From Pseudomonadota bacterium (GTDB lineage: Bacteria > Desulfobacterota > Binatia > Binatales > Binataceae): DNA of 64,000 bases. The first letter of the stretch is position 1; each line of letters opens with the position of its first letter. Both the position numbers and the translations under genes were made by a program. Under the pieces are notes generated by a model. It had not been told where the DNA came from. It worked only from the letters and a program-made list of their open reading frames with translations, and made no database searches. Below are positions 4,301 through 47,645 of the stretch, piece by piece. The stretch covers positions 96,344-160,343 of the forward strand of contig JAJPIG010000006.1 of NCBI GenBank assembly GCA_021324855.1. Direction: 5' to 3'.

Positions 4301-5758
4301 TCAGGCCTGCCGCGCGGCGGGCGTGTCGGCCTGGGTCTTGCGCGCCTCTGCGGCGACCCGGCTGTGATAGCGCCCGTAGCCGAAGTAGATCACGAACCCG
4401 ATTCCCATCCAAATGAAGAATCGAATCCAGGTGACGGTCGGCAAACTCGACATCAGGTAGCCGCAAAAGAGCGCGCCGAGGATCGGCACCAGCGGCACCA
4501 ACGGCGTGCGAAATGGCCGTACAAGACCCGGCTCGGCGTACCGCAGGATCCAGACGCCAAGGCAGACCAGCACAAAAGCGAACAAAGTGCCGATGTTGGT
4601 CAGTTCCGCGATTTCCTGGATTGGCAGCAGCGCCGCTGCGACACCCACCGCAATCCCGGTCAGGATCGTCGGGATATACGGCGTCTGGAAGCGCGGATGG
4701 ACGCGGCTGAATGCCGGCGGAAGCAGGCCGTCGCGCGAAATCGCGTAGAAAATGCGCGATTGTCCGAGCAGCAGCACCAGCAACACCGAGGTCAGCCCTG
4801 CAACCGCGCCAATGGAGATGATTCCTGAGACTGCGCGAAGCCCGCGGATCACGAATGCCGACGCGAGCGGCGCGTTGATGTCGAGCATCCGCGCCGGCAC
4901 CATCCCAGTGACCACTGCCGCCACCAGCACATAGAGCGCCGTGCAGACAAACAGCGATACCAGGATTCCGATCGGCAGGTCGCGATTCGGCTCGACGACC
5001 TCCTCGGCGGCCGTCGAGACCGCATCGAACCCGATGTACGCGAAGAAGATTACCGCCGCGCCCTTCATCACCCCGTTCCATCCAAAGGGCGCGAACGGAT
5101 TCCAGTTGGCGGGCCGCACATAGAACGCACCGACTACGATCACGACGCCAATCACAATCAGCTTGACCGCGACGATCAGCGAATTGAACCGCGCACTCTC
5201 CGAAATTCCGATGTAGAGGATGCCCGAGATCAGCAGGACAATTAGCAGCGCCGGCAGATCGATGATCGCGCCCGGCATTGACCCGGGGGCGTGCGTCAGC
5301 GCGACCGGCAGGTGAATCCCCACGCCTTCGAGAATCACGCGCAGATAGCCGGACCATCCGACGGCAACGGCCGCCGCTCCAACCGCGTACTCGAGCACCA
5401 GGTCCCATCCGATGATCCAGCCGATCAGTTCGCCCATCGTGGCGTAGGCGTACGAATAGGCGCTGCCCGCAACCGGTATCATCGCGGCGAACTCCGCGTA
5501 GCAGAGCGCTGCCATCGCACAGGCGAACCCGGAGACACAGAACGAAAGCACCACGGCGGGGCCGGCATACTTCTCGGCGGCGACTCCGGTCAGCACGAAA
5601 ATTCCGGCGCCGACGATCGCTCCGATTCCGAGCAGCGTGAGGTCCAGCGCTCTGAGCGCCCGTTTCAACCCGCCCGCGGTCGCCGACTCGCTCATCAGCA
5701 TCGCGGCGGGCTTGCGCCGCAGAAGCTGCGCCGTCAATTCGTGCGTTGCGTTACTCAT
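4301..5758 (-). CDS. cationic amino acid/APC permease (YfnA-like)
   Basis: 12-TM pattern; LTLLGIGAIVGAGIFVLTGVAAEKYAGPAVVLSF motif. Confidence 0.9.
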   Translation of the reverse strand: MSNATHELTAQLLRRKPAAMLMSESATAGGLKRALRALDLTLLGIGAIVGAGIFVLTGVAAEKYAGPAVVLSFCVSGFACAMAALCYAEFAAMIPVAGSAYSYAYATMGELIGWIIGWDLVLEYAVGAAAVAVGWSGYLRVILEGVGIHLPVALTHAPGSMPGAIIDLPALLIVLLISGILYIGISESARFNSLIVAVKLIVIGVVIVVGAFYVRPANWNPFAPFGWNGVMKGAAVIFFAYIGFDAVSTAAEEVVEPNRDLPIGILVSLFVCTALYVLVAAVVTGMVPARMLDINAPLASAFVIRGLRAVSGIISIGAVAGLTSVLLVLLLGQSRIFYAISRDGLLPPAFSRVHPRFQTPYIPTILTGIAVGVAAALLPIQEIAELTNIGTLFAFVLVCLGVWILRYAEPGLVRPFRTPLVPLVPILGALFCGYLMSSLPTVTWIRFFIWMGIGFVIYFGYGRYHSRVAAEARKTQADTPAARQA

Positions 5759-5844
5759 CGAACAGTCCGTGAGCCTTAGCGAACCGGTGCGGGCCGTTCA
5801 ACCGCGATATGAAAGATTTAGGAACTGATCGACGGGCGCTTTCG

Positions 5845-6675
5845 CTACCAGGCCTGATAACCGCCGTCAACCGCGATCGTCGAGCCGGTCACGTAGCTCG
5901 CCGCCGGAGCGGCAAGGAAAATCACTGCGCCGCGAATTTCTTCGGGCTTGCCCAGCCGCGCCATCGGCGTGAAGGTCTCCATCCGCTCGCGCCATTTCGG
6001 CTTGGCGATTCCGCCGGCCGTGGCTTCGGTCGGAATCCATCCGGGCGCGATTGCATTGACGAGAATTCCATAACGCGCCCACTCGATCGCGAGCTGGCGG
6101 GTGAGATTCGCGAGCGCGCCCTTCGTCGCGGTGTACGACGACAGGCGGTAGACCGCGCTGCCATGAGCGGCGAGCACCGACGTGATGTTGATAATCCTGC
6201 CCGGGCGCCCAAGTTCGATCAGCCGCGCCGCGACCTTCTGCGACAGCACCATCGGCGCGGTCAGATTGGTCGCGATCGTCGCGTCCCAGTCCTTGCGCGG
6301 AAATTTCTCGGCCGGGCCGGTCGGCGAGATGCCGGCATTGTTGACGAGAATATCGATTTCGCCCAGTTCTGCGCGGATCGACGCAAGTGCGCGATCGATC
6401 GCGGCATCGTCGGTGACATCGCAGGCAGTCGCATAGGTGTGAACGCCGTATTTTTTCTTGAGCTCGGCGGCCAGCTTTTCGATTCGGTCGGCGCGCCGCG
6501 CAACCAGGGCCACATCGGCGCCGCCGATCGCAAGCGCGTGGGCGCATTCGACGCCCAGCCCCGACGATGCGCCGGTTACGAGCCCCCGATGACCGCGGAG
6601 CGAAAAGAGCGCGTCAAGCGAATCCATCGCAGGCTCAAGCCGCCAGCGTTTCAGCGGCTGCCGCCCGCGCCGCAT
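5845..6675 (-). CDS. SDR family oxidoreductase
   Basis: TGASSGLGVECA, NNAGISPTGPA, YTATKGAL, C-terminal VDGGYQAW. Confidence 0.9.
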   Translation of the reverse strand: MRRGRQPLKRWRLEPAMDSLDALFSLRGHRGLVTGASSGLGVECAHALAIGGADVALVARRADRIEKLAAELKKKYGVHTYATACDVTDDAAIDRALASIRAELGEIDILVNNAGISPTGPAEKFPRKDWDATIATNLTAPMVLSQKVAARLIELGRPGRIINITSVLAAHGSAVYRLSSYTATKGALANLTRQLAIEWARYGILVNAIAPGWIPTEATAGGIAKPKWRERMETFTPMARLGKPEEIRGAVIFLAAPAASYVTGSTIAVDGGYQAW

Positions 6676-18798: not shown

Positions 18799-19839
18799 TT
18801 AGCCTAAAAGCTCCAGTCCGCGCTCAAACAGGCGCGGCCCGGAAAGCGCGATCGTCTCCCACATCGGATCGGGGCGCTTGCCGCGCCGATGCAGCATCAA
18901 GTTGAACGCGGTGATGACGCCGAAGCGATAGCCCGCGAACGCGCGGAACCAACCGACGTCGCCGCGCTCGATCTGATCGCCGAGTGCCCGCTCGTATTCA
19001 TCAACGATTTCATCGGGAAGCGGGCACGCGGCCGGCAGCAAATCGTCCGTCGCCCAACTCTCGCGATCGGAAAACATGCAGAGCCATCCGATGTCGATGA
19101 GGACCGCGCCAGTCTGCGCGAGTTCCCAGTCGATCAGCGCGACCAGGCGATGATCACGGAAGAGACAGTTGGACCATTGGAAATCGCCATGAACACATCC
19201 GAGGCGGATCCGCTGTGGCATTGTGGCGATCAGTCGAGCGCGGAGCTGCGGGGCGCGCGCAATCAATCGCTGCTCGAGGGTTGGCCGGTCGAGGAGGCGG
19301 GCGAGCCGGTCGAGCTCGCCGGCGAGCTCGACCGGCTCGCCAAAGACGTGGCGCCATGCGCGCCAGTCGAGCCGATGCAGCGCGGCGGCGGCGCTCGCCG
19401 CCGCCGCGCTGCATCGGCGCATCTCGTCGGCGGAGAACCGGCGTTCGCCGAGCGCCGGCTTATCGCCGGCGATGAACTCCGCTACGAAGAACGGCCGTCC
19501 AAACCATCGGGGATCATCGTCGTACCACAGGATCGGCGGAACCGGGACGCCGCTCGGTGACGTCCCCGTTCCGGCGGCGCCGCCGAGCATCGCCATGATC
19601 CGCCCCTGGCGCGCCACGTCGTTGGGACCGGTGGCCGGCGCGCCCGCAGGGGCGAGCCGTAGTACGAGGGGGGCGGCGCGGGCATCGCCCGCGCCGCCCC
19701 CCTCGTACGTGAAACGATAGCTCACCCCCGCATGCCCCGGCAGCGGCTCGATGCCGCTGATCCGGGCATGCGGATCACCGATGCACTCCCGGAACAGCGT
19801 CGTCAGCCGCGCGGTGAGATCGATCAGCTCCGGATTCAT
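18799..19839 (-). CDS. phosphotransferase (APH) family protein
   Basis: CVHGDFQWSNCLF and ALIDWELAQTG kinase motifs. Confidence 0.88.
   Translation of the reverse strand: MNPELIDLTARLTTLFRECIGDPHARISGIEPLPGHAGVSYRFTYEGGGAGDARAAPLVLRLAPAGAPATGPNDVARQGRIMAMLGGAAGTGTSPSGVPVPPILWYDDDPRWFGRPFFVAEFIAGDKPALGERRFSADEMRRCSAAAASAAAALHRLDWRAWRHVFGEPVELAGELDRLARLLDRPTLEQRLIARAPQLRARLIATMPQRIRLGCVHGDFQWSNCLFRDHRLVALIDWELAQTGAVLIDIGWLCMFSDRESWATDDLLPAACPLPDEIVDEYERALGDQIERGDVGWFRAFAGYRFGVITAFNLMLHRRGKRPDPMWETIALSGPRLFERGLELLG
19300..19341. repeat. 42-bp perfect palindrome inside CDS
   Basis: ggcgagccggtcgagctcgcc|ggcgagctcgaccggctcgcc, no loop. Confidence 0.95.
19375..19414. repeat. 19-bp perfect inverted repeat, 2-nt loop, inside CDS
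   Basis: atgcagcgcggcggcggcg ct cgccgccgccgcgctgcat. Confidence 0.95.
19662..19708. repeat. 22-bp perfect inverted repeat, 3-nt loop, inside CDS
   Basis: gtacgaggggggcggcgcgggc atc gcccgcgccgcccccctcgtac. Confidence 0.95.
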
Positions 19840-40291: not shown

Positions 40292-40801
40292 GTGCCGGTC
40301 GAGGTGCTATGCGAGAGCGCGGGGGCGCGCCGCTATGTCGAAGCTGTGCGGAAGGATGCGGCGGCGCTTCTGCGGGCGAGCGGAGTGGATAACTGCGAGT
40401 TATCGATTCTGATCGTGGACGATTCGCGGATGCGGGTGCTGAATCGCGATTTTCGAAACCGGGACCGGGCAACGGATGTACTCTCGTTTCCGCAGTTCGA
40501 CGGGATCCCGGGCCGAGCGGGAGCGGCGGCGCGGAACGCGCCGCCGCTCCCGCTCGGCGATGTAGTCATCTCGCTGGAGACCGCCCGCCGCCAGGCGGCG
40601 GCGGGCGGTCTCCAGACCGCGGGCCGCCTCCGCGCGCTGCTCGTCCACGGCTTTCTCCATTTGCTCGGGTACGATCACGAGCGCTCGCTCGCCGACGCGC
40701 GGCGGATGTTCGCGCGCGAGCGCGCACTCGGCGCGCTGCTCGAGGATAGCGCCCGGCGGCGGCGCGCGCCCGGCGCGCGCCGCCGCCGGGTATCGCGATG
40801 A
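40292..40801 (+). CDS. ybeY: endoribonuclease YbeY
   Basis: NRDFRNRDRATDVLSFPQ; LGDVVISLETARRQA; LLVHGFLHLLGYDHE. Confidence 0.93.
   Translation: MPVEVLCESAGARRYVEAVRKDAAALLRASGVDNCELSILIVDDSRMRVLNRDFRNRDRATDVLSFPQFDGIPGRAGAAARNAPPLPLGDVVISLETARRQAAAGGLQTAGRLRALLVHGFLHLLGYDHERSLADARRMFARERALGALLEDSARRRRAPGARRRRVSR
40512..40558. repeat. 22-bp perfect inverted repeat, 3-nt loop, inside ybeY
   Basis: gccgagcgggagcggcggcgcg gaa cgcgccgccgctcccgctcggc. Confidence 0.95.
40574..40615. repeat. 19-bp perfect inverted repeat, 4-nt loop, inside ybeY
   Basis: ctggagaccgcccgccgcc aggc ggcggcgggcggtctccag. Confidence 0.95.
40752..40790. repeat. 19-bp perfect inverted repeat, 1-nt loop, inside ybeY 3' end
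   Basis: cccggcggcggcgcgcgcc c ggcgcgcgccgccgccggg. Confidence 0.95.
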
Positions 40802-41352
40802 GCCCTCGGACCGCGCCGAGACTGCCCTCTGCGCCAATGCTGACGCATTTCACTCGCGCGTCGCGCGCCGGCAATGCATTCGACAATCTGTTGACGATTC
40901 TCGAGCAGCGCGCGATACGCGGGTCGACCCGGATGGTCCACGGAAAGCAGCCCGTGGTCTGTCTTTTCGATGCACCGCTCGGCGAGTTACGCAGCCTGCT
41001 GGATCGACGTAACCGCCGCCGTTACGAGCCATTCGGGATGGCGGTGAACAAACGGTATGCTTTTAGATTGGGCGCGCGCCCGGTTATCTATCTGCCGTGG
41101 GCTGAAGCACAGAAGGTGGTTGCTCACGAGGAGCTATGGCGCGTGGTGACCATCGACATGGAACGAACTCCTCCGATCGATTGGAGCTTTGAGCGCGAAT
41201 GGCGGCTCGCCGGGGATTTGCCGCTCGAGCCGCGCCAGGTTGTCGCATTGGTTGACAATTGGCGCGATGTCGACGAAGTCTTCGCCCGCTTCGATGGGCA
41301 TCCGCCGTGCGCGGGCGTGATTCCCCTGAGCGCCCTGTTCGAAACGCCATGA
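40798..41352 (+). CDS. AbiGi/DarT-like (DUF2971-like) protein
   Basis: LTHFTRAS...NLLTILEQRAI...VVCLFDAPL...YEPFGMAVNK...GARPVIYLP...DWSFEREWRLAGDL. Confidence 0.6.
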   Translation: MSPRTAPRLPSAPMLTHFTRASRAGNAFDNLLTILEQRAIRGSTRMVHGKQPVVCLFDAPLGELRSLLDRRNRRRYEPFGMAVNKRYAFRLGARPVIYLPWAEAQKVVAHEELWRVVTIDMERTPPIDWSFEREWRLAGDLPLEPRQVVALVDNWRDVDEVFARFDGHPPCAGVIPLSALFETP

Positions 41353-47611: not shown

Positions 47612-47645
47612 AACGCGGCCGGCGCGATGCGCCGGCCGCGTTTTT
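47612..47645. terminator. terminator between convergent genes
   Basis: aacgcggccggcgc gat gcgccggccgcgtt + T-run. Confidence 0.85.

What the first reader, a model, noticed from the sequence alone, without database searches (positions are those of the whole stretch)
40512..40790. Three perfect long palindromes inside the 510-bp ybeY gene
Inverted repeats with 22-, 19- and 19-bp perfect arms and loops of only 3, 4 and 1 nt fall in the coding sequence (40512-40558, 40574-40615, 40752-40790). Arm sequences differ from one another, so they are not copies of one conserved element; each looks generated locally, e.g. by templated snap-back synthesis. All are in frame. The first encodes an extra loop (FPQFDGIPGRAGAAARNAPPLPLGD) and the last encodes an Arg-rich tail (SARRRRAPGARRRRVSR) past the HGFLHLLGYDHE core. 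Perfect arms under codon constraint imply recent origin, active correction, or selection for the hairpin.
Basis: partly seen in the sequence, partly recalled or inferred. Interest (0 to 1): 0.7.

Follow-up and report, generated by a model that had tools for sequence, protein, structure and literature searches.

The report
Perfect hairpin palindromes inside bacterial genes
This bacterium carries a distinct set of flawless DNA hairpins (17-26 base pairs per arm) inside ordinary protein-coding genes such as ybeY, probably made and kept perfect by DNA polymerase briefly copying its own new strand; this resembles the 'coding palindromes' known from hairworm mitochondria, which I know of in no bacterial chromosome.

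Summary
In detail: three perfect inverted repeats (22/19/19 bp arms, loops 3/4/1) lie at exactly the stated places in ybeY. They are not isolated. An APH-family gene 20 kb away has three more (21-23 bp). In 1.41 Mb of predicted coding sequence from this genome there are 21 perfect hairpins with arms >=15 bp in 12 genes, against 0.24 expected from synonymous-codon shuffles. Arm lengths form a separate hump at 17-26 bp above a chance-level background at 10-14 bp, and the hairpins cluster within genes.

Nor are all three recent. Hairpin 2 is mostly paired in the other sampled species of the genus, with two compensatory changes. Hairpin 1 arose in this lineage by rewriting the 5' arm to match a conserved 3' arm.

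Best explanation: template switching at quasipalindromes, running on to perfection and then homogenising the arms, in a lineage with no detectable hairpin nuclease SbcCD. Mismatches in the relative show no RNA-wobble bias (26 G.T, 25 A.C), so selection on mRNA structure is not supported. The mechanism is inferred, not shown. Closest precedent: coding palindromes of nematomorph mitochondria. New variant of a known kind.

The parts
40292..40801 (+). ybeY (endoribonuclease YbeY, 169 aa, GTG start), carrier of three perfect coding palindromes
40512..40558 (.). Hairpin 1: 22-bp perfect arms, loop GAA; lies in the variable linker before LGDVVIS; 3' arm ancestral, 5' arm rewritten
40574..40615 (.). 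Hairpin 2: 19-bp perfect arms, loop AGGC; codes LETARRQAAAGGLQ; mostly paired also in genus-mate G001
40752..40790 (.). Hairpin 3: 19-bp perfect arms, loop C; in the variable basic C-terminal tail; origin not resolvable
18799..19839 (-). APH-family phosphotransferase gene carrying a second set of three perfect coding palindromes
19300..19341 (.). 21-bp perfect arms, loop 0; quasipalindrome 57-71% paired in five relatives of other genera
19371..19418 (.). 23-bp perfect arms, loop 2
19662..19708 (.). 22-bp perfect arms, loop 3; 16/22 paired in G001, three compensatory pairs

Best explanation
The hairpins are coding palindromes made by template switching at quasipalindromes. GC-rich coding sequence contains imperfect inverted repeats by chance. 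When one passes a threshold, the nascent strand (or lagging-strand template) folds back during replication and the polymerase copies one arm from the other, in frame and mostly without change of length; the switch repeats until the stem is perfect over about 17-26 bp. Later mismatches are corrected the same way, so arms evolve together and stems are nearly all-or-none. They survive where the protein tolerates the change (linkers, ends of helices, tails). This lineage has no detectable SbcCD, the nuclease that cleaves DNA hairpins, which would let hairpin intermediates live longer. SHOWN: the discrete population, perfection, clustering, no insertion (apart from one codon in one RNase HI arm), and one-arm rewriting in some cases. 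INFERRED: the polymerase mechanism, the threshold, and the role of SbcCD loss.
For: Arms of 10-14 bp occur at codon-shuffle expectation (35 observed, 35 expected) but 19 arms of 17-26 bp at about 0 expected. For 18-bp stems in 1.55 Mb: 16 perfect against 0 in Markov copies, and few internal mismatches; most '1-mismatch' cases are shorter perfect stems with a terminal mismatch. 9 adjacent pairs within 500 bp, random mean 0.16. Alignments of ybeY, APH, murF, RNase HI and ArnT-like genes show the hairpins in pre-existing, mostly equal-length sequence. G001 pairs 60% of the same columns (shifted controls about 30%) at unaccelerated divergence (69% identity in arms, 66% outside). ybeY hairpin 1: 7 own-lineage changes in the 5' arm, none in the 3' arm. 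G.T = 26, A.C = 25 mismatches in G001, so no RNA wobble preference. SbcD above cut-off in 1 of 40 family genomes; own SbcC hit is only a 58-residue SMC-like stretch. The switching mechanism is established in E. coli (PMC7202029).
Against: No template-switch event was caught between close strains; the nearest available genome is only 60-74% identical in protein. Clustering within genes is not fully explained by local GC (murF and the ArnT-like gene are ordinary in GC). SbcCD is also missing in genus-mate G001 and many class relatives with few such hairpins, so its loss cannot be sufficient. The excess of double compensatory pairs is not significant overall (18 against 13.6 expected, p=0.09). 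Polarity of changes uses distant outgroups and is noisy.
Confidence: 0.6

Rival explanations
1. Selection for strong mRNA (or DNA) hairpins with a function, such as mRNA stability, ribosome pausing or nuclease targeting, keeps the stems.
For: ybeY mRNA folds far better than dinucleotide shuffles (z=-7.7) and hairpin 2 still folds in G001. Several hairpins per gene. Two hairpins also lie in ybeY of another genus, G025, in the linker and near hairpin 2.
Against: Stems are flawless rather than tolerating G.U; decayed pairs in G001 show no G.T excess over A.C (26 against 25). Carrier genes are unrelated in function. Hairpins are absent from most orthologs. No Rfam family matches the region.
Confidence: 0.17
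2. Assembly or library artefact: foldback reads or graph collapse turned imperfect repeats into perfect ones in this assembly.
For: The assembly is fragmented (38 contigs) and read data are not available here; near-binary perfection is what a collapse would give.
Against: Frames stay open, and arms are as similar to G001 as the rest of the genes (69% against 66%). Many arms are shorter than 21 bases, the smallest assembly word I know to be in common use. Similar coding hairpins occur in other assemblies (G025 ybeY 17 bp, G013 murF 19 bp, L056 17 bp).
Confidence: 0.1
3. Composition alone: GC-rich, Arg/Ala/Pro/Gly-rich genes give such palindromes by chance.
For: 9 of 12 carrier genes lie in the top sixth of genes by GC even without the hairpins; ybeY shuffles occasionally reach 14-19 bp.
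Against: Codon shuffles keeping protein and codon usage give 0.24 arms >=15 bp against 21 observed, and none >=17 against 19. Relatives of equal or higher GC lack them: G041 at 68% GC and G007 at 64.5% GC have no coding arm >=15 bp in the 100-120 kb sampled.
Confidence: 0.05
4. A family of mobile palindromic inserts in genes, like the Rickettsia palindromic elements.
For: Intragenic, in frame, several per genome.
Against: Arms are unrelated to one another and have no other copies in the genome. Alignments show no insertions of hairpin size.
Confidence: 0.02

Closest known systems
Coding palindromes in mitochondrial genes of Nematomorpha (Mikhailov et al. 2019, PMC6649704)
   Same: Perfect inverted repeats inside functional protein-coding genes, both arms coding for protein; near-binary perfect/absent pattern; gained and lost between species; arm conversion proposed.
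   Different: There up to 284 bp in animal mitochondria; here arms of 17-26 bp in a bacterial chromosome, with no bias towards the least constraining codon phase (9 phase 2, 7 phase 3, 5 phase 1).
Quasipalindrome template-switch mutation in E. coli (PMC7202029)
   Same: Imperfect inverted repeats become perfect by the polymerase copying the nascent strand.
   Different: Known mainly as mutational hotspots; here a standing population of long perfect stems in many genes.
[quoted passage not shown]
   Same: Excess of close inverted repeats in CDS attributed to template switching.
   Different: That excess concerns 6-9 bp repeats and is small; here 10-14 bp is at chance and the excess sits only at 17-26 bp.
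Rickettsia palindromic elements
   Same: Palindromes inside bacterial genes, in frame.
   Different: Those are related insertions (my own knowledge) that lose arm identity with time (as described in PMC6649704); here unrelated in sequence, not inserted, and perfect.

Membership tests
Coding palindromes (nematomorph type) | Perfect inverted repeats within protein-coding genes, above codon-shuffled expectation | tested here: met
   21 against 0.24 for arms >=15 bp
Coding palindromes (nematomorph type) | Both arms encode conserved protein sequence, no insertion needed | tested here: met
   Alignments of ybeY, APH, murF, RNase HI and ArnT-like genes; the PcnB and hairpin-3 tails and DUF4838 hairpins are in poorly conserved parts; one codon inserted in RNase HI
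Coding palindromes (nematomorph type) | Binary identity: long repeats perfect, no excess of imperfect ones | tested here: met
   mismatched long stems are few and partly terminators
Coding palindromes (nematomorph type) | Concerted evolution of arms between close individuals | not testable with these tools
   No genome closer than 60-74% protein identity was available
Coding palindromes (nematomorph type) | Mitochondrial location | tested here: not met
   Bacterial chromosome of 3.75 Mb in 38 contigs; hence 'works like', a bacterial variant, rather than a member
Quasipalindrome template-switch products | Imperfect ancestor made perfect by copying one arm | tested here: inconclusive
   ybeY hairpin 1: 7 own-lineage changes all in one arm; other hairpins mixed; distant outgroups
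Rickettsia palindromic elements / mobile palindromes | Related copies dispersed in the genome | tested here: not met
   The ybeY DNA search of the own genome finds only itself and its own reverse arms, plus one 39-bp weak match outside the hairpins
Rickettsia palindromic elements / mobile palindromes | Insertion relative to orthologs | tested here: not met
Intrinsic terminators / known structured RNAs | Terminal U-run outside CDS, or Rfam match | tested here: not met
   Inside conserved CDS; no Rfam hit in 18500-41500

The most novel reading that the evidence does not exclude
This lineage has a dedicated or unusually active arm-conversion process, beyond generic template switching, that builds and maintains 17-26 bp perfect palindromes in coding genes as quasi-parasitic sequence, with a definite size and several events per gene.
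Probability: 0.15. Interest if true: 0.8.

Novelty: new variant of a known kind. Interest (0 to 1): 0.52.

Why it matters
Quasipalindrome correction is known mainly as a mutational hotspot. A bacterial chromosome with a discrete, countable population of perfect coding palindromes in core genes (ybeY, murF, RNase HI) would let the creation, perfection and decay of hairpins be followed, and would show that templated multi-base changes reshape proteins. It gives a free-living counterpart to the unexplained nematomorph mitochondrial palindromes and suggests a testable link to loss of the hairpin nuclease SbcCD.

Tried and rejected
Mobile palindromic element (no copies, no insertions). Terminators or Rfam RNAs. 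RNA-wobble selection: G.T equals A.C. Recent wholesale rewriting of all hairpins: arms are not accelerated in this lineage (own-derived to G001-derived 43:78 inside, 535:657 outside). Overall covariation with G001: double changes 18 against 13.6 expected, not significant. SbcCD loss as a sufficient cause: also missing in G001 and much of the class. Loss of exonuclease VII: xseA present in all 40 family genomes. A preferred 3-nt loop (ATC/GAT/CAT) looked promising in the first few hairpins, but loops run from 0 to 9 nt.

Full report
OBSERVATION. The three inverted repeats are present at the stated coordinates with perfect arms of 22, 19 and 19 bp and loops of 3, 4 and 1 nt. They lie in a 169-residue YbeY. 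A scan of the whole window found six perfect arms of 19-23 bp in two groups: the three in ybeY and three in an APH-family phosphotransferase gene at 18799-19839, minus strand. Order-3 Markov copies of the window never exceeded 14 bp.

GENOME-WIDE. The window lies in a 3.75 Mb assembly of 38 contigs. I fetched 1.55 Mb of it (plus the window). In 1.41 Mb of predicted coding sequence (my own ORF caller, so approximate) arms of 10, 11, 12, 13 and 14 bp occur 27, 3, 3, 1 and 1 times; synonymous-codon shuffles give 23.4, 8.5, 1.8, 1.3 and 0.4. But 19 arms of 17-26 bp occur where the shuffles give none. This is a separate population, not the tail of a chance distribution. Hairpins with arms >=15 bp lie in 12 genes: ybeY (3), APH (3), murF (3), DUF4838 (2), ArnT-like (2), RNase HI (2), and one each in pcnB, an ABC-F gene, a lipoyl-domain acyltransferase, a sensor kinase and two others (names not covered are my reading of the sequence). 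Nine adjacent pairs are under 500 bp apart; random placement gives 0.16 on average. For 18-bp stems there are 16 perfect ones in this genome, none in 1.06 Mb of relatives, and 5 in 1.29 Mb of diverse bacteria, where no arm >=18 bp fell inside a predicted gene.

ANATOMY AND ORTHOLOGS. An alignment of YbeY with 29 relatives shows that the segment called an extra loop is a linker that relatives also have, often longer, and that most relatives have a basic C-terminal tail. The hairpins are therefore rewritten coding sequence, not insertions. The same holds for murF, APH, RNase HI (one codon inserted) and the ArnT-like gene. In murF, KVTGRIPAGMRPVTFG carries a 26-bp perfect palindrome, while genus-mate G001 has KVTARIPAGLRTITFG with 19 of 26 pairs. 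Across 15 hairpins G001 keeps 60% of the pairs, where shifted controls give about 30%. Divergence inside arms is ordinary: 69% identity to G001 inside, 66% outside. Reconstructing the own/G001 ancestor with outgroups gives 86% of resolved pairs already paired, and 33 of the 35 others fixed by one change in this lineage. This figure leans upwards, because the stems were chosen for being perfect here.

INDIVIDUAL HISTORIES. ybeY hairpin 1 is young: 8/22 pairs in G001, 3' arm 95% identical to G020, and all seven own-lineage changes in the 5' arm, as expected if the 5' arm was copied from the 3' arm. ybeY hairpin 2 is older: G001 has 15/19 pairs plus two G.T, two pairs changed on both sides, and its mRNA still folds there. 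Hairpin 3 lies in an unalignable tail. One APH hairpin (19300-19341) sits on a quasipalindrome that is 57-71% paired in five relatives of other genera, where conserved protein motifs happen to be complementary. ybeY of G025, in another genus, has a 17-bp and a 12-bp perfect hairpin, one in the linker and one close to hairpin 2; murF of G013 has a 19-bp one.

MECHANISM. Perfection without G.U tolerance, near absence of mismatched long stems, one-arm rewriting, and equal numbers of G.T and A.C mismatches in the relative (26 and 25) point to DNA-level templating, not to selection on RNA. In E. coli, polymerase stalled at a quasipalindrome switches to the nascent strand and makes the repeat more perfect (PMC7202029). 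A threshold beyond which switching runs to completion and then corrects later mismatches would give the observed two-class distribution; this step is inference. The hairpin nuclease SbcD is above its cut-off in 1 of 40 family genomes and 23 of 98 class genomes; this genome has neither SbcD nor a full SbcC. In the three sampled genomes with SbcD (G004, G041, G050; 340 kb) there is no perfect arm >=13 bp at all, while each sampled genome without a detected SbcD has some. G007 has a contig-end SbcC and may belong with the first group. This correlation is suggestive only: samples are small, GC differs, and G001 also lacks SbcCD. That SbcCD cleaves DNA hairpins is established knowledge, not tested here.

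RIVALS. Artefact of assembly cannot be closed without reads, but open frames, normal conservation of the arms and independent examples in other assemblies speak against it. Selection for a hairpin function is not excluded for hairpin 2, but nothing positive supports it for the set. Composition contributes raw material (most carrier genes are GC-rich) but fails quantitatively.

COMPARISON WITH THE KNOWN. The closest precedent is the coding palindromes of nematomorph mitochondria, whose authors also stress binary perfection and propose arm conversion. [quoted passage not shown] A limited search of open papers found no description of a discrete 17-26 bp class in bacterial genes; absence there is weak evidence. 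I class this as a new variant of a known kind.

ORGANISM. Not named by the tools. Related YbeY sequences come from bins labelled Deltaproteobacteria and Candidatus Binatia, so a Binatia-like lineage is possible but not established.

Noticed in passing
window 18799-19839 (-): APH-family phosphotransferase gene with three perfect palindromes (21, 23, 22 bp arms), not mentioned in the finding.
   Followed up: yes
window 47612-47642: Isolated 14-bp perfect inverted repeat, loop 3, outside the predicted genes.
   Followed up: no
L148 (G000:C14) 2639-2679 and 5928-5984: Two hairpins sharing the arm AGCAGCGGCCCGGA..., apparently a dispersed palindromic repeat, unlike the unrelated coding hairpins.
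   Followed up: no
L236 (G000:C17) 6316-6354 and L274: The 18-bp hairpin at the start of the ArnT-like ORF is 17/18 paired in G001 with identical encoded peptide TGTALKLDLSAVPD: the best conserved of all, perhaps a 5' regulatory hairpin upstream of the true start.
   Followed up: partly
G000 and family f1: SbcCD appears to be missing in nearly the whole family (SbcD above cut-off only in G004), while exonuclease VII is universal.
   Followed up: partly
window 40798-41352 (+): An ORF of 184 aa overlaps the ybeY stop (ATGA) and lies between ybeY and an apolipoprotein N-acyltransferase-like gene; function not examined.
   Followed up: no
L148 ORF near 4464-5936 (-): Protein with repeated HPEWWGD-type tryptophan/histidine-rich units.
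   Followed up: no
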